Source: an uncultured Clostridia bacterium
Lineage (GTDB): Bacteria; Bacillota_I; Bacilli_A; RF39; UBA660
Length of the DNA: 52,568 nt
NCBI GenBank assembly: GCA_947643225.1
Contig: CANRVH010000005.1
Location: 1 to 52,568 of the forward strand
Reading direction: 5' to 3'
The translations under genes were made by a program, and so were the position numbers. The notes beneath the pieces are model-generated. The model did no database searches. It was not told the DNA's origin and saw nothing but the letters and a program-made list of their open reading frames with translations. Position 1 is the first letter of the stretch. Each line of letters starts with the position of its first letter. Of the stretch, positions 6,929 through 45,206 are shown piece after piece.

Positions 6929-8110
6929 CTATTTAAAATCTTTTTCATATTCTACATCACTAACTTCATATTTTCTATTATTTGAAATAAAACTTAATAA
7001 TCTAGTAGAACTCCATCCAATAATAGCTAAAATAAAGAAATAGAAAACTCCAAAAATAGTAAATTCAGGTGCTGTTTCTGTAAGTAAGCCAATAATAGAA
7101 GCCCCTGCACTCATCGAAGTAACAATTGTTAAACTATTAACAGAACTAGATGTAACATCTTGCTTAATCCCATCAAATAACTTTTGAGCTGCTGAAACAT
7201 AATTTTTCGTCATTCCCCATAAATATTTAATATAATCTAAAGTATCACGTAAAGTCTCATAACGATATCCAGATATAGCCAAAAATTCCTCCAACTCAGA
7301 GTCACTTTTAGCAATCTTTTCTCTTGTCGAAATATAAGTACTCATTTGATTAATTCTTCCTTCTATTAAGTTAATCGTTTTAGCATAACCCTCAAGTTTA
7401 GTCGTAAACTTAACAATTTCAGCACCTTTTACATTAATATTTTCTTTAACAACGTCTATTTTTTCCCAAATAATTCGGTGAATATTTAAGTATCGATGTA
7501 GTTGTCCTTTAAACTCACGAATAAAAACCTGTTCTTCTATATATCTTTCTATATTATCAAAAGATTGTTTCTTATTATTGATAAAATAATATTTATCTCC
7601 TCTTATAACATCATATTTATCATTATTAAACTCAAAATACTTCTGTTTTTCTGTTCTAGACAATAAATCAGATATTCCCTCACGAGCAACATTATCACAA
7701 ACAATAAAATAAGGATAAATATTTTCAATATTAGCAAGCTCCTTTGGAACAGGAGCACCTAAACTAAATAAATAATTAAAAGCAGGGGTTAATTTATTCT
7801 CATAATAGTCTTGAACATGATCGATATCAGCAAATAAAGTATCTTCACTTACCTTCTGATTATTAAGAACAATTAATCCATCTTCAAATATTTTAACCTT
7901 AATATCAACAGCAGTAGTAAATTCAATATACTCTTCGCCTGCCACACCATAATCAATCTTACCAATTTCTAACGCCTTACGAAATGCACTCATTTTTTCA
8001 GCATCAAGATTAAGCTCAGTTTTACAATCTCTTAAGAAATCATAAACTTCAGATAATTGTAACATTGTCCTTTGAAACCAACCACCAATATATACATTAC
8101 TAATTTTCAT
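6929..8110 (-). CDS. Unknown two-helix membrane protein with CorA-like layout
   Basis: The 393-aa protein has a large N-terminal cytosolic part, a long helical coiled region (about 200-325) and two C-terminal membrane segments (about 327-342 and 350-367) with a short charged tail. This layout recalls CorA-type channels, yet the GMN selectivity motif between the helices is absent: the loop reads TETAPEF. I cannot assign a function. Alternatives are a membrane-anchored carrier or partner for the ABC exporter encoded six bases downstream. GGGGGG lies about five bases before the ATG. Being sandwiched between a GNAT gene and an exporter gene suggests one shared job. Confidence 0.65.
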   Translation of the reverse strand: MKISNVYIGGWFQRTMLQLSEVYDFLRDCKTELNLDAEKMSAFRKALEIGKIDYGVAGEEYIEFTTAVDIKVKIFEDGLIVLNNQKVSEDTLFADIDHVQDYYENKLTPAFNYLFSLGAPVPKELANIENIYPYFIVCDNVAREGISDLLSRTEKQKYFEFNNDKYDVIRGDKYYFINNKKQSFDNIERYIEEQVFIREFKGQLHRYLNIHRIIWEKIDVVKENINVKGAEIVKFTTKLEGYAKTINLIEGRINQMSTYISTREKIAKSDSELEEFLAISGYRYETLRDTLDYIKYLWGMTKNYVSAAQKLFDGIKQDVTSSSVNSLTIVTSMSAGASIIGLLTETAPEFTIFGVFYFFILAIIGWSSTRLLSFISNNRKYEVSDVEYEKDFK

Positions 8111-9750: not shown

Positions 9751-9868
9751 TGAACCCTAAAAGTTGGACAGTTTATAAAATATTTCTGACTAGAGGTTGT
9801 AATCTATCACAATTATAATCATTAATATAGTCAACTATCGTAACAGAAAAAGCTGATTCATTACTTAA
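9751..9868 (-). mobile_element. Remnant of an IS3-family (IS150-like) element, 3' end of transposase plus terminal repeat
   Basis: On the minus strand a frame encodes ESAFSVTIVDYINDYNCDRLQP and a few more residues to TAA at 9773-9775. This matches the C-terminal pattern of IS3-family OrfB (YI-YYN--R-Q). It is followed 3 bases later by TGTCCAACTTTTAGGGTTCA (9751-9770), the typical IS150-group terminal inverted repeat. Everything upstream is lost, so it is a dead end fragment. Apart from the C10 run and the gltX terminator, this is all I see between the transglutaminase-like gene and gltX. Confidence 0.6.
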
Positions 9869-9870
9869 TA

Positions 9871-9880
9871 CCCCCCCCCC
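9871..9880. repeat. Homopolymer of ten C
   Basis: Ten consecutive C in an otherwise very AT-rich intergenic stretch, at the broken edge of the IS3 remnant. No gene or promoter obviously depends on it. It may vary in length or be an assembly artefact. Confidence 0.9.
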
Positions 9881-9950
9881 TATTAATTATTCCTTCCTTT
9901 ACTTCTTTAGAATAAATTTTATTTTACTTCATAAGATAACTTTTCCATAT

Positions 9951-39646: not shown

Positions 39647-40507
39647 TTATATTCTATTATTTGCCTTTTGCTCTCTAACTAATACTCCAACACCAGAATG
39701 TAAGGGAATCCCTTTCTTTAAATACAATCCAATCCCTCTCTGTAACAAAGTATTTTGTCTTGTTTCATTATGAATAACAAATTTTAAAAATGAAGCTTGA
39801 TCCTCCACTAATCCCACCAATTGAAATTTCTTTTGAAATTGAATAATATGACTATCATCATCCAAAATTTGAAGTAATTCTGGACTTAAAAGCCAACTAT
39901 CTGTATAATAAATAACCTCTTCAAGATCAATTTCTTGATAATACTTTTCAATTAAAGAATCAACCTTTTCCAACGAATTGCTAACATCATCTAAATTCAG
40001 TTCTTTATTATAAGGAATATGAATCTTAAATAAACTCTTTGAAGCATAACTTTCCAAATATTTTGGGGTTTGATAAACTAGTTCATATTGAAGAGGGCCA
40101 ATCTCGATTAAATTTCCTCTTATCAACCTAGCTCCCCACTGTAAATCATCAAAACTCACTTCCTTCTTTTTCAAAATAGAATGAATAACATAAATCTGTC
40201 TTTCTACCTGCCACAAATCAAAATTTCTTCTTTGCATATTCTTTAAATGAAGAAAATATCCAGTAAGAAGAATAATTCCGTTTAAACTCTTATTATTTTT
40301 CAAATCTTCATCATATTTTTTGAGTATTTTATAATATTCTGTATTATCAACAAATAATAATTGATGATAATAAATAATACTATCTTGAAGCACAGAGTTA
40401 TGAGAAACAATAACCAACAGTTTCAATATGTTCTCAATTTCTGTTACCCGATAAAAACTCATTGCCCTTATTATATAATCTTTTTCCAAATATTTTTCCA
40501 TAAACAT
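39647..40507 (-). CDS. Acyltransferase-domain protein (NAT_N/GNAT_C type)
   Basis: 286 aa. An N-terminal helical domain is followed by a GNAT_C-like half: LFKIHIPYNKELNLDDVSNS, then YTDSWLLSPELLQILDDDSH and IIQFQKKFQLVG. This is the pattern (IHIP..., C-SWLL-P-L, SNI--F---F) of the acyltransferase-domain proteins widespread in Clostridia and Bacilli. The substrate is unknown. It begins 31 bases after the half-helicase/nuclease gene, in the same direction, so cotranscription is likely. The ribosome binding site is weak (GGAAAA); ATG 40501 is an alternative start. Confidence 0.65.
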   Translation of the reverse strand: MFMEKYLEKDYIIRAMSFYRVTEIENILKLLVIVSHNSVLQDSIIYYHQLLFVDNTEYYKILKKYDEDLKNNKSLNGIILLTGYFLHLKNMQRRNFDLWQVERQIYVIHSILKKKEVSFDDLQWGARLIRGNLIEIGPLQYELVYQTPKYLESYASKSLFKIHIPYNKELNLDDVSNSLEKVDSLIEKYYQEIDLEEVIYYTDSWLLSPELLQILDDDSHIIQFQKKFQLVGLVEDQASFLKFVIHNETRQNTLLQRGIGLYLKKGIPLHSGVGVLVREQKANNRI

Positions 40508-40538
40508 TTTTCCATTATTATGACTATTTATGAACTAG

Positions 40539-42101
40539 CTATATACTCATAGACATTAGAAGTTTCTCTATCTTATCTAATAAATAATCTGATGGTTCCT
40601 CCCCTTTTTCTTTTAAAGCAATCATAATTAATAGATCTTCATCAGTCAGATCAATAATCAATTGTTTCTCATCTTTTAAAATCCCCATAGAAACAAAATA
40701 AGCATTTTCATGAAAACCGTGCCGAGAAATAACAAAAGCTACATTCCTCAATGCGGATGAAAATAAATACTTCTGTGTAATGTAAATTGAATTTTGAGGG
40801 ACAAGATCCGAATAGTTTTTATATTCAAAAACAACAAATTTTGTATGATAGAACTGAATTAAAAACTTCCAAAACTCTGTTGTTCCCTTCAAAGAACACA
40901 ATAAATCCATCTGAAACATATTATCTTTTGTTCTATGTTGAAATGATTTTTGCAAAAATTCTCCAGAAAAAAGATATAAAATAATATCATTACAAATATT
41001 TTGATACTCATAATTTGTATTTTCTTCTTTTCCTGCTGGACAATTTTTAAGTCTCTTTTCAAATATCTGATAATAAGAAACTTTAGAATCCTGAATAATA
41101 CTTTCAATACTTTTCTGACTAGATAACAAAGCCTGTTTTTCTATACCAGTTACAGAGTATGGCATAATATTACAAAGTTTATTCATTAAATCCTGCGAAG
41201 ATTGGACCAAATAAAGAATATTACAAATATCCCAAATTTCTATTTGTTTCTCATCATAAGCTCTCTTTTTAAAACCTGAATCAACAATACAATTCATTAC
41301 TAAAACAGAACAAATATTTCCTTCTATATTTTGTTTTATTTTTTCTACTTGATGAATTGCCTGTTTAACTAACGAAGAAGAAACAATAGAATCCCGATAA
41401 GTCTTTACTTCAAATAAATAAGACATTCCATCCTTCTTAGCCATCACATCAATACAATACTTTTGATGTTGAGAATTGATCTGCTTTTCACATACGATAT
41501 CTAAATACCCTAAATATTTCAGTAATGAAATAAAGAAATTAGTAATAAATGATTTTTCTAGAGATTGGTGAATCACTCCATCCTCAAAAGCCTCCGACAT
41601 ACGATATTCATAAATAGGTTGAAAAAAACGATTAAACCTATTTCTATTACCTTTACGATTAGTAATTTCTAGATATTTTGTTTTAGAATCACCTTTTATA
41701 AAAAGATCCCTCTTATTCAAATAGAAACGATCCACATCTTCATAAATAATTAAATCAAATGAATTTTTTTCAATTTGATCAAAAGGAACAAGTAATAAAT
41801 CCTGAACAGAGCACAAAAAGACATTCCCTTTTTTAATATTTAATAAAGAATCAGCTAATAATACGATAACAGATTGATCAATTATTTTTCTATATTGCTG
41901 AAGTATTTCATTATGAGAACAAAAAATCAATATTCGAGCAGTACGATCATTTTTTAAAATTTTTTCAATAACCGTTGCAATAATAACTGATTTTCCAACT
42001 CCTGCTGGAAGAATCACACTTCCACTGAATAAATCAGAATAAAAGAAATGAACAATCTTCTCCACCGCTTCTCTCTGATACGAATATAACTCATTTTTCA
42101 T
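40539..42101 (-). CDS. Half SF2 helicase fused to two nuclease-like domains
   Basis: 520 aa. Residues 1-180 form helicase lobe 1 of the type I restriction/UvrB-like branch: Q motif LYSYQREAV, Walker A PAGVGKS (32-38), motif Ia ILIFCSHNEILQQY, motif II IIYEDVDRF (118-125, EDVD instead of DEAD/DEAH), and a lobe end QPIYEYRMSEAFEDGVI. Lobe 2 with motifs IV-VI is missing. Residues 185-300 look like a PD-(D/E)xK nuclease: IDVMAKK...LFEVKTY with Asp218, Glu231, Lys233. Residues 365-475 look like a second: MDLLCSL...FEYKNYS with Asp399, Glu426, Lys428. It is possibly a defence or DNA-repair protein. Neighbours are a phosphotransferase-like gene (37-base gap) and an acyltransferase gene. Domain calls rest on motifs only. 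Confidence 0.6.
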   Translation of the reverse strand: MKNELYSYQREAVEKIVHFFYSDLFSGSVILPAGVGKSVIIATVIEKILKNDRTARILIFCSHNEILQQYRKIIDQSVIVLLADSLLNIKKGNVFLCSVQDLLLVPFDQIEKNSFDLIIYEDVDRFYLNKRDLFIKGDSKTKYLEITNRKGNRNRFNRFFQPIYEYRMSEAFEDGVIHQSLEKSFITNFFISLLKYLGYLDIVCEKQINSQHQKYCIDVMAKKDGMSYLFEVKTYRDSIVSSSLVKQAIHQVEKIKQNIEGNICSVLVMNCIVDSGFKKRAYDEKQIEIWDICNILYLVQSSQDLMNKLCNIMPYSVTGIEKQALLSSQKSIESIIQDSKVSYYQIFEKRLKNCPAGKEENTNYEYQNICNDIILYLFSGEFLQKSFQHRTKDNMFQMDLLCSLKGTTEFWKFLIQFYHTKFVVFEYKNYSDLVPQNSIYITQKYLFSSALRNVAFVISRHGFHENAYFVSMGILKDEKQLIIDLTDEDLLIMIALKEKGEEPSDYLLDKIEKLLMSMSI

Positions 42102-42138
42102 TTCATCACCTCATTATTTAACAATTTTTACATATAAA

Positions 42139-43923
42139 TCATTTTACTTTTATTATTCCTGTACTACCATCCATTTGTACAAAATCACCATCATTTAATA
42201 CTTTAGTAGCTCTTTTACAACCAACTATACAAGGTATTTGAAGTTCACGGGCAACTATACTTGCATGACATGTAATTCCCCCTTCATCTGTAATTATCCC
42301 CTTTGCTCTTTTAATCACTTCAATAAACTTTGGAACAGTCATTGGTGTCACTAAAATATCCCCATCTTTAAACTTTTTAAAATCTTTTTCACTAAAAACT
42401 TTACAAACCCTTCCACTTACACTTCCAGAACAAGCAATTTCTCCTTTTAAACCATCAGTTTCCTCTTCCTCATCAATTATACACATATGATTATCTTCTA
42501 ACCATTTTTTGTAATTATCCGTTGTATATAATTGACCAAAATAAATATAACCCTTACTTCTTTCTTCTAAATCTTTTATTGAGGGAAATTTTTGATTGAC
42601 TATCTCCTTCAAAGTTAAAAATGAAATATAATTTTGATACTTTTCACTTAATTCATCTCTTATCCTCTCTTCTAAAAGTATACAAGTCTCATGAATAAAA
42701 TGATCATAATGATCTCTATACTCCAAAAATATCTCTTTAACTCTTTTCGTAATATCATGAAAATGACCTGCCAATTGACCTAAACTACTAAAAGGATATA
42801 GACTAATCAACAATCTACTTATTTCTTCTATATCAACTTTTTCACTTTTTATTTTTGTATTAATTTTTTCTATATTTTTAATTGCAATATGATATCGATC
42901 CAACAATTCATCATAATGAAAATCAAGCTCTCTATATATTAGTCTTGGATCCTCTTCAAGATCTAAATAATTATAATAAATTTCAACTGTTTCATAATAG
43001 GAACGATAAATAAACAGTGGTTTGAAATAATAAAGACCTCTTGTTAAATTTTTAATTCCATAAAACTCGCCCTTAAAATATATTTCCTGCTCAATAATTG
43101 AATGAGGTCTCGTTATAGACAAAGAAAATGGCTTTATAGATTTTATCATTTTACTAATCGGTCTTACTTGCAATATAAATATTTCACCACCTTTAATCGC
43201 ATACTCTATATCAACAGGAAAACCATATATTTTTTCAATTTTTAATATTATTTTCTCTAAATCAACGATAATTTGATGATCTATATTTATCGTTCCAATC
43301 TTTAAATCAATATTCGATGTTTGCCTTCTTACTAAAAATTTATTGGGAGTTTTTTGACCCGAAACTAATTCCTCGCCTAAACCTTCTACAATTTCAATAA
43401 CAGAATAATTATTTTTATCATCCGTAGGATCAATAGAAAAAGCAACCCCCGCAAAATCAGCATCAACCATTTGTTGAACTATTACATTCATTCCAAATAT
43501 ATTTGGACTTTCCTCATATTCCAATATATTTTTTTCATATAAAGAACACCAACATTTTTTTATGCTCTTTTCCAAATTATCTTCATCAATATTTAAATAT
43601 GTATTATATTGCCCAGCAAATGACTTAAAATTTCCATCTTCATTAGATGCTGAAGACCTAACTGATACTTTTTGACAATTTAATTTTCTAAATTCTTTTT
43701 TTATTTTAAAAATGAACTTATCATCAAAGCTACCATTTAAAATATTTCTTATAATTTCTTCATTTTTCTTTTCTTCAAACAACGATTCTATTTTTTTAAC
43801 TAAATAATTATCATTTAAAAATTGAATATACTCTTGCTCATCTATAATAAAAAATTCAGGAATATTTATCTTATTTTCTTTCAATTTTAATAATGAATTA
43901 GCTTTACCACCATAATTTTTCAT
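42139..43923 (-). CDS. Rifampin-phosphotransferase/PEP-synthase-like dikinase
   Basis: 594 aa. The N-terminal PPDK-type ATP-grasp covers about 1-255: GGKANSLLKL, SVRSSASNEDGNFKSFAGQY, FILQVRPI. A middle helical domain (about 270-480) corresponds to the substrate-binding region of rifampin phosphotransferases. The C-terminal swivelling His domain (about 495-594) has DEGGITCHASIVARELQIPC, with the phospho-His in TCHAS. The PEP-binding TIM barrel of true PEP synthases is absent. It thus transfers phosphate from ATP through His to an unknown acceptor. It is shorter than the about 860-aa Rph proteins, so the middle domain is reduced. AGAGG lies five bases before the ATG. Confidence 0.8.
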   Translation of the reverse strand: MKNYGGKANSLLKLKENKINIPEFFIIDEQEYIQFLNDNYLVKKIESLFEEKKNEEIIRNILNGSFDDKFIFKIKKEFRKLNCQKVSVRSSASNEDGNFKSFAGQYNTYLNIDEDNLEKSIKKCWCSLYEKNILEYEESPNIFGMNVIVQQMVDADFAGVAFSIDPTDDKNNYSVIEIVEGLGEELVSGQKTPNKFLVRRQTSNIDLKIGTINIDHQIIVDLEKIILKIEKIYGFPVDIEYAIKGGEIFILQVRPISKMIKSIKPFSLSITRPHSIIEQEIYFKGEFYGIKNLTRGLYYFKPLFIYRSYYETVEIYYNYLDLEEDPRLIYRELDFHYDELLDRYHIAIKNIEKINTKIKSEKVDIEEISRLLISLYPFSSLGQLAGHFHDITKRVKEIFLEYRDHYDHFIHETCILLEERIRDELSEKYQNYISFLTLKEIVNQKFPSIKDLEERSKGYIYFGQLYTTDNYKKWLEDNHMCIIDEEEETDGLKGEIACSGSVSGRVCKVFSEKDFKKFKDGDILVTPMTVPKFIEVIKRAKGIITDEGGITCHASIVARELQIPCIVGCKRATKVLNDGDFVQMDGSTGIIKVK

Positions 43924-44000: not shown

Positions 44001-45206
44001 CTAAACATCTTTTAAACTTAATAACGATAGACATTCAACGTGATAAGTTCCTGGAAACATATTAAATAACTTGATACTTAAAAGTTGATATTTCTCTTTT
44101 AAATCCTTTAAATCTCTAGCAAAAGTAATAGGATCACAAGATATATAAATTATATATTTTGAATTTATCCTTTTTAAGAAGTCTCTTGTTTTTCGATCTA
44201 GCCCACTTCTTGGAGGATCTATAATAATTGTATCATAATTGGTAGGCAACTGATCCAAAATATCTTCTACTCTAGAATGAATAAAACGGATATTTCGAAT
44301 ATCGTTAATTTCTTTGTTGTAATTAGCATCTTCTATTGCCTCTTTCACTACCTCTATTCCTACAACTTCATCTACATAAGGAGAAAGGGATATTCCAATT
44401 GTTCCTACACCACAATATAAGTCTAACACCCTTTTAGAATTTAAATGCTTGATTTGATTAATTATCTCCTGATATAAATACTCTACAACTTGATCATTAA
44501 CCTGAAAAAAAGAAGAGGATCCAACACAAAATTTTTTATCCATAATATAAGAAGAGATATATCTTTTAGAGACAACTTTTTGATTAACAATTAAACTATC
44601 TGAAAGTGCTAGAAAATCATCAATATGTTTTACTTTACCAACAATAGCCATCATCACTTCATTCGTTCGATAACCAAGTCTTAACATAATTTTTGATATT
44701 CCCATCTCCTTTCGTACTAAAACCTTCAATACTTTTATAATATCATTTAACTGCTCATGAACAAGATAACATCGATCAATTTCTACTAATTGATTGGATC
44801 TTTCCCTTAATAGACCTATTTTTCCATTCTCTACTGTTAAGGTAATTTTATTTCGATAAAAATAACGATCTCCTCCTATAAAATTTAAATTATAAGATTC
44901 AATCCCAGCAAATTTTTTTAAGATATTGATCACTTTATCTTTCTTAAATTGTTCTTCTAAAAGCAAATTCATATGTTGTAAACAACAACCTCCACAAACA
45001 AAAAAATATGGACATCTAGTTTCTATTCTATTTTCATTTTTTTCAAAAATAGATAATGCTTCTGCTTGATTATATTTTTTCCTTTTTTCAGTAATTTTAT
45101 ATTCTACTAGTTCATTTTCTAATACATAAGGAATAAATGTAATTTTGTCATCAATAAAAGCTATTCCTCTGCCAAAATCATCCAATTTTTTAATTTGTAC
45201 ATTCAC
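44001..45206 (-). CDS. 23S rRNA uracil-C5-methyltransferase (RlmD/RlmCD family)
   Basis: 401 aa. A degenerate TRAM domain is followed by the [4Fe-4S] motif CPYFFVCGGC (C65, C71, C74), SAM site LDLYCGVGTIGISLSP, DPPRSGLD and the nucleophile Cys in YISCDPITFARDL. It methylates uridines in 23S rRNA. Bacillota carry one or two paralogues, so the exact position cannot be stated. It is divergent from the gerA-like gene. Confidence 0.92.
   Translation of the reverse strand: MNVQIKKLDDFGRGIAFIDDKITFIPYVLENELVEYKITEKRKKYNQAEALSIFEKNENRIETRCPYFFVCGGCCLQHMNLLLEEQFKKDKVINILKKFAGIESYNLNFIGGDRYFYRNKITLTVENGKIGLLRERSNQLVEIDRCYLVHEQLNDIIKVLKVLVRKEMGISKIMLRLGYRTNEVMMAIVGKVKHIDDFLALSDSLIVNQKVVSKRYISSYIMDKKFCVGSSSFFQVNDQVVEYLYQEIINQIKHLNSKRVLDLYCGVGTIGISLSPYVDEVVGIEVVKEAIEDANYNKEINDIRNIRFIHSRVEDILDQLPTNYDTIIIDPPRSGLDRKTRDFLKRINSKYIIYISCDPITFARDLKDLKEKYQLLSIKLFNMFPGTYHVECLSLLSLKDV

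What the first reader, a model, noticed from the sequence alone, without database searches (positions are those of the whole stretch)
39647..43923. Candidate new system: phosphotransferase-like enzyme, half-helicase/double nuclease, acyltransferase
Three minus-strand genes with gaps of 31-37 bases combine an Rph-like dikinase, a helicase lobe 1 with EDVD Walker B but no lobe 2, fused to two PD-(D/E)xK-like domains, and a NAT/GNAT_C acyltransferase. Nuclease-helicase fusions are typical of defence systems, but this architecture, with only half a motor, is unlike the restriction systems I know. The lobe 1 may act as an ATP switch rather than a motor.
Basis: partly seen in the sequence, partly recalled or inferred. 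Interest (0 to 1): 0.7.

Follow-up and report, generated by a model that had tools for sequence, protein, structure and literature searches.

The report
Lone half-helicase double-nuclease defence gene
One of the three genes is a real but unnamed bacterial protein that joins half of a DNA-unwinding motor to two DNA-cutting domains, moves between genomes on its own and probably destroys invading DNA; the two genes beside it are chance neighbours, so the proposed three-gene system is not supported.

Summary
In detail: three minus-strand genes with 37- and 31-base gaps encode a PEP-synthase/Rph-like dikinase, a helicase lobe 1 fused to two PD-(D/E)xK domains, and a GNAT_C protein. They are not a system. 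In sister species G003 the locus is colinear (RumA–GNAT_C–MarR–ABC–ABC) but lacks the dikinase and the half-helicase nuclease. None of the fused homologues examined has a dikinase or GNAT_C gene beside it, and 18 homologue-bearing genomes lack a dikinase orthologue.

The middle gene ('HELNUC') is a conserved, complete, roughly 500–530-aa family in Bacillota: one clade, at least 19 members, no second lobe. Its C-terminal 335 aa is a widespread stand-alone two-nuclease family (phrog_31260, unknown function), also found fused to TIR or cytosine methylase. Both nuclease triads are nearly invariant. The lobe diverges: 11 of 18 lack GK[ST], 8 of 18 lack the Walker lysine. HELNUC moves horizontally: in two Blautia species it is 96% identical beside 74%-identical rumA genes, and in one it lies between ~150-bp repeats of the rumA end.

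Best reading: a single-gene, DNA-degrading defence nuclease whose half-helicase is a recognition/docking module, not a motor. Function is inferred; nothing was assayed.

The parts
40539..42101 (-). HELNUC: helicase lobe 1 + two PD-(D/E)xK nuclease domains (520 aa); the feature of interest
41553..42101 (-). SF2 helicase lobe 1 (residues 1-183), RadD/XPB-like; the chain leaves the helicase near the usual lobe1-lobe2 hinge and runs into nuclease 1
   Evidence: Pfam ResIII; profile search matches RadD and XPB, and HsdR over residues 6-184; Foldseek RadD
41988..42008 (-). Walker A PAGVGKS (residues 32-38), intact here, degenerate in 11 of 18 family members
41730..41741 (-). Walker B position EDVD (residues 121-124)
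41202..41552 (-). nuclease domain 1, Mrr-like PD-(D/E)xK (residues ~184-300; D218, E231, K233)
   Evidence: fold hits AF1548, XisH, R.BspD6I
40539..41057 (-). nuclease domain 2, PD-(D/E)xK (residues ~349-520; D399, E426, K428 invariant); most conserved part (59% mean pairwise identity against 30% for nuclease 1 and 25% for the lobe)
   Evidence: PADLOC PDC-M36A match 349-499
42139..43923 (-). PEP-synthase/Rph-like dikinase, 594 aa (ATP-grasp, middle domain, His-domain); accessory gene between rumA and HELNUC, not linked to HELNUC elsewhere
39647..40507 (-). GNAT_C acyltransferase-like protein; shared with sister genome G003 at the same locus, not part of the insert
44001..45206 (-). RumA-type 23S rRNA uracil methyltransferase; the insert follows its 3' end
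   Evidence: rumA is a known ICE insertion site (PMC4701971)

Best explanation
Shown: HELNUC (40539-42101) is a complete member of a single-gene protein family in which a helicase lobe 1 is fused to the N-terminus of a widespread two-nuclease module. It lies, next to an accessory dikinase gene, in an insert between rumA and a GNAT_C gene that a sister species has without the insert. Inferred: it is a single-gene defence (type IV-like or abortive) nuclease. The helicase lobe docks on or recognises some feature of invading DNA (replication intermediates, ends or modified DNA) without translocating. This places or releases the two PD-(D/E)xK active sites, which cut the DNA, plausibly one strand each. 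Where Walker A is intact, as in the window copy, ATP binding may gate this step, but the motor cycle of a two-lobed helicase is not available. The dikinase and GNAT_C take no part.
For: Fused homologues of ~500-530 aa in Lachnospiraceae, Oscillospiraceae, Clostridia and Bacilli fall in one clade (100% SH-aLRT, 19 fused rows plus one stand-alone). No dikinase or GNAT_C gene lies beside them and no dikinase orthologue is found in 18 homologue-bearing genomes. Colinear sister locus without the insert. Nuclease residues in the 18 fused rows: nuclease 1 D 18/18, E or D 17/18, K 17/18; nuclease 2 D/E/K 18/18; in 33 mixed fused and stand-alone rows D/E/K are invariant except two E-to-D. Lobe: GK[ST] absent in 11/18, lysine absent in 8/18, needing at least 2 and 3 changes on the nuclease tree. 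Mobility: HELNUC is 96.1% identical between Blautia schinkii and B. parvula while adjacent rumA is 74.0%; rumA-end repeats of ~150 bp flank it. Swappable N-termini on the same module: none, helicase lobe, TIR_2, C5 cytosine methylase; nuclease 2 alone on an AAA ATPase in Klebsiella plasmids. Defence neighbours: Gabija 8 bp downstream and Fic upstream (L053), Fic (L047, L050), Mrr (L041, L095). PADLOC families matched by the 113 nearest genes: 206; by 113 distant genes of the same loci: 48.
Against: No activity was measured. Many loci show no recognised defence gene next door, and PADLOC counts are of overlapping models, not independent genes; the mad2/mad3 hits near HELNUC are partly the RumA methyltransferase itself. 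Stand-alone members are common on predicted viral contigs, so the module could serve phage or plasmid competition rather than host defence. The domain arrangement in the models is uncertain (pTM 0.58-0.61), so cooperation of the two active sites is not shown.
Confidence: 0.6

Rival explanations
1. The three genes form one defence system: the dikinase and the acyltransferase make or sense a signal that controls the half-helicase nuclease.
For: Same strand, gaps of 31-37 bases, so possibly co-transcribed.
Against: No HELNUC locus elsewhere has either gene; no dikinase orthologue in 18 HELNUC genomes; GNAT_C sits at the same locus without HELNUC in sister G003; the genome holds dikinase paralogues at two other loci without HELNUC.
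Confidence: 0.04
2. HELNUC is a mobile-element or prophage gene used against competing elements (superinfection exclusion or inter-phage/plasmid warfare) rather than a host defence gene as such.
For: The stand-alone module is phrog_31260 and occurs on about 25 IMG/VR viral contigs; a fused copy lies on an IMG/VR contig between rumA-type repeats (L095); plasmid-borne members; rumA is an ICE insertion site (PMC4701971).
Against: In the window no integrase, phage or conjugation gene was recognised next to it, though neighbours of other loci were only sampled; the effect would still be DNA destruction, so the mechanism is the same.
Confidence: 0.2
3. HELNUC acts in DNA repair or recombination of the host, like RadD (helicase) or the XPB-Bax1 helicase-nuclease pair.
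For: Lobe 1 is closest to RadD and XPB; XPB-Bax1 complexes are weak fold hits.
Against: Patchy: 1 of 8 genomes of its own genus, only the window's genome among 392 in the phylum sample and 2 fused of 397 in the Blautia family; horizontally transferred; Walker lysine absent in 8 of 18.
Confidence: 0.08
4. The lobe is a decaying relic of a helicase-nuclease and only the nucleases matter.
For: GK[ST] absent in 11 of 18, and lobe identity only 25% against 59% for nuclease 2.
Against: The lobe is kept at near full length in the fused members aligned, including those without Walker A, while only one possible complete loss (L046) was seen; a relic would be expected to be deleted more often.
Confidence: 0.08

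Closest known systems
phrog_31260 / stand-alone two-nuclease 'restriction endonuclease' (e.g. WP_010974295.1 of Agrobacterium fabrum C58)
   Same: The C-terminal 316-335 aa of HELNUC align end to end (E 1.7e-54; 27-29% identity) with both D/E/K triads
   Different: No helicase lobe; found in Pseudomonadota, Bacteroidota, Acidobacteriota and Bacillota and on viral contigs
Mrr (type IV restriction, PF04471)
   Same: Nuclease 1 of stand-alone, TIR- and methylase-fused relatives and of the fused L047 scores above the Mrr_cat cut-off
   Different: HELNUC has a second nuclease and a helicase lobe; the window copy itself does not reach the Mrr_cat model
RadD / XPB (SF2 helicases)
   Same: Lobe 1 fold and motifs I and II
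   Different: No lobe 2, hence no motif VI arginine finger; nucleases in its place
PDC-M36A (PADLOC phage defence candidate)
   Same: Nuclease 2 matches positions 287-436 of the 457-position model (2.5e-10)
   Different: Only that domain matches; the window's two neighbours match no PADLOC family
SauUSI (ATP-dependent type IV enzyme)
   Same: One polypeptide with helicase and nuclease parts; Foldseek hit 7clg
   Different: From general knowledge, SauUSI has a complete two-lobed motor and a PLD nuclease
Rph / PEP synthase / PigC (for the dikinase gene)
   Same: ATP-grasp and His-domains with the catalytic histidine motif
   Different: 594 aa against about 780-900 positions in those models; far below all NCBIfam cut-offs; substrate unknown

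Membership tests
   no dikinase or GNAT_C gene beside the fused homologues examined; sister genome has GNAT_C without the others
functional SF2 helicase | two RecA lobes | tested here: not met
   no lobe 2 in sequence or model of the window protein, nor in the aligned fused members
functional SF2 helicase | Walker A GK[ST] | tested here: inconclusive
   present in the window copy and 6 relatives, absent in 11 of 18
PD-(D/E)xK nuclease (both domains) | fold plus D...(D/E)xK residues | tested here: met
Mrr family (PF04471) | score above gathering cut-off | tested here: inconclusive
   not reached by the window protein or several fused relatives; reached by stand-alone relatives and L047
phrog_31260 | near full-length match to the family model | tested here: met
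   residues 204-519 to positions 31-364 of 365; HELNUC is an extended member
PDC-M36 | whole PDC-M36A protein with a partner gene | tested here: not met
   partial match only; neighbours match nothing in PADLOC
anti-phage defence gene | protects cells against phage | not testable with these tools
   context only
Rph (rifamycin phosphotransferase) | NCBIfam equivalog cut-off | tested here: not met
   167.6 bits against 999
GNAT_C (PF18164) | gathering score | tested here: met
   86 bits against 22.8

The most novel reading that the evidence does not exclude
The two-nuclease module is a general effector that bacteria and phages arm with interchangeable recognition heads (half-helicase, TIR, cytosine methylase, AAA ATPase). 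In the half-helicase branch a single RecA lobe without motor function, often without a working ATP site, serves as the DNA-recognition head of a one-gene defence protein.
Probability: 0.35. Interest if true: 0.65.

Novelty: new variant of a known kind. Interest (0 to 1): 0.47.

Why it matters
It turns a misread three-gene 'system' into a defined, testable one-gene family with no name, and shows one helicase lobe kept as a building block after its motor parts, and often its ATP site, are gone. The same nuclease pair on helicase, TIR and methylase heads offers a direct way to ask how sensing heads switch on a common DNA-cutting effector.

Tried and rejected
(1) Three-gene system: rejected by sister-genome synteny and homologue neighbourhoods. 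(2) Truncation or frameshift of a longer helicase: rejected, since fused homologues have the same length. (3) Direct repeats of the rumA 3' end in the window, as in Blautia: none found, so the site-specific route is indicated only in Blautia. (4) RumA as a functional partner of HELNUC: considered because a rumA-family gene is adjacent in L035, L036, L037 and L056; an insertion hot spot explains it better (repeats; differing genes after rumA in other Blautia; PMC4701971). (5) PADLOC mad2/mad3 hits near HELNUC: discounted, at least partly methyltransferase cross-matches. (6) Literature searches for PDC-M36, helicase-nuclease single proteins and Mrr-TIR defence proteins found no description of this protein; hits were judged by title and abstract only and subscription papers are not covered.

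Full report
Observation. The three ORFs, gaps and domains are as described. The window is contig C5 of a 1.4-Mb genome in 65 contigs, by its gene content and relatives a member of the Bacillota; the nearest HELNUC relative is in a Bacilli MAG (L038).

The genes are not a unit. In same-genus genome G003 (L118) the order ABC–ABC–MarR–GNAT_C–RumA, with further genes on both sides, is colinear with the window but lacks the dikinase and HELNUC. DNA similarity runs through the rumA end and resumes at the GNAT_C start. G002 has RumA–MarR–ABC–ABC without GNAT_C, and G005 has a different five-gene insert there. HELNUC has no homologue in the 7 other genus members sampled. The dikinase has a 47% paralogue and a second, more distant one elsewhere in the genome, and otherwise one broken orthologue among 394 other genomes of the class sample. 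Since the insert lies inside a colinear contig, a binning artefact is unlikely. Whether both genes came in together is not known, and gain here rather than loss elsewhere is the more economical reading, not proved.

HELNUC is a real family. One scan of 84,980 species genomes gave 60 loci. The 17 fused relatives aligned with the window copy all lack lobe 2. The C-terminal 335 aa is the stand-alone family phrog_31260. In the tree of the nuclease part the fused proteins fall in one clade with 100% SH-aLRT (19 fused, 1 stand-alone); the enclosing larger clade also holds Bacillota stand-alone, TIR-fused and methylase-fused proteins (quick tree without bootstrap). This fits one origin of the fusion.

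What is conserved. Mean pairwise identity: lobe 25%, nuclease 1 30%, nuclease 2 59%. Nuclease residues are nearly invariant and the Walker A is not. From inspection of alignment A3, the segment where SF2 helicases carry motif III shows no S/T-A-T in the aligned members; this was read by eye, not tested. The end of the lobe (YxY...eAixDGY) resembles the segment that precedes lobe 2 in restriction-type helicases, and the HsdR match extends over it.

Mobility and context. B. schinkii and B. parvula HELNUC genes are 96.1% identical, adjacent rumA genes 74.0%. In L035 repeats of ~150 bp (87%) at 7701-7870 and 9770-9918 flank HELNUC; L036 has a shorter second copy; viral contig L095 has HELNUC and an Mrr-like gene between two copies. 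rumA is a known integration site of streptococcal ICEs (PMC4701971). Neighbours include Fic, Gabija, Mrr and an HTH-peptidase regulator; PADLOC families are commoner among the nearest than the distant genes. Counts there are of models, so the size of the enrichment is not calibrated.

Models. AlphaFold2 gave pLDDT 88.6 (whole) and 92.3 (nuclease pair), but pTM 0.61 and 0.58, so the domains are reliable and their arrangement is not. Fold hits: RadD, SauUSI, Card1; AF1548, Card1, XisH, Can2, R.BspD6I; phage restriction endonucleases in BFVD.

Mechanism. Shown: architecture, conserved active sites, lack of lobe 2, partial loss of the ATP site, horizontal transfer in Blautia, independence from the neighbours. 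Inferred: DNA cutting, defence role, lobe as recognition or docking head, ATP as optional gate.

Noticed in passing
L177:1270-2781, L178:1498-2931: TIR_2 domain fused to the same two-nuclease module in two genomes of the Blautia family (one match above, one below the Pfam cut-off); could be a one-gene TIR-nuclease defence protein.
   Followed up: partly
L179:484-2430: C5 cytosine methylase (PF00145) fused to the same two-nuclease module: a possible restriction-modification enzyme in one chain.
   Followed up: partly
L207:2501-4570 (CP109716.1); similar matches in 66 Klebsiella plasmid records and 2 phage records: 689-aa AAA-type ATPase whose C-terminus matches the second nuclease domain only.
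   Followed up: partly
window 42139-43923; G000:C10:17236-18996; G000:C18:11595-13289: Three dikinase paralogues in one small genome; the C10 copy lies next to a haloacid dehalogenase-like hydrolase gene, and the C18 copy near a small gene that looks HAD-like by eye.
   Followed up: partly
L121:2241-6436 (G005): A different five-gene insert in the same rumA-ABC interval of a same-genus genome, so the site is variable.
   Followed up: no
L047, L050, L053 upstream of HELNUC: Fic/DOC genes directly upstream of HELNUC (about 15 bp in L047 and L050, overlapping ORFs in L053).
   Followed up: partly
L031:4523-7685 (Rhizobium pCC511_4): TIR/TGT-like, OGG-like glycosylase, QueC-like and TIR genes next to the stand-alone nuclease: looks like a deazaguanine-related defence cluster.
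   Followed up: no
L043 and L044: An 'Ignavibacteriae' MAG contig has the same gene layout and HELNUC length as a Firmicutes MAG (both HGW series): possibly a binning error.
   Followed up: no
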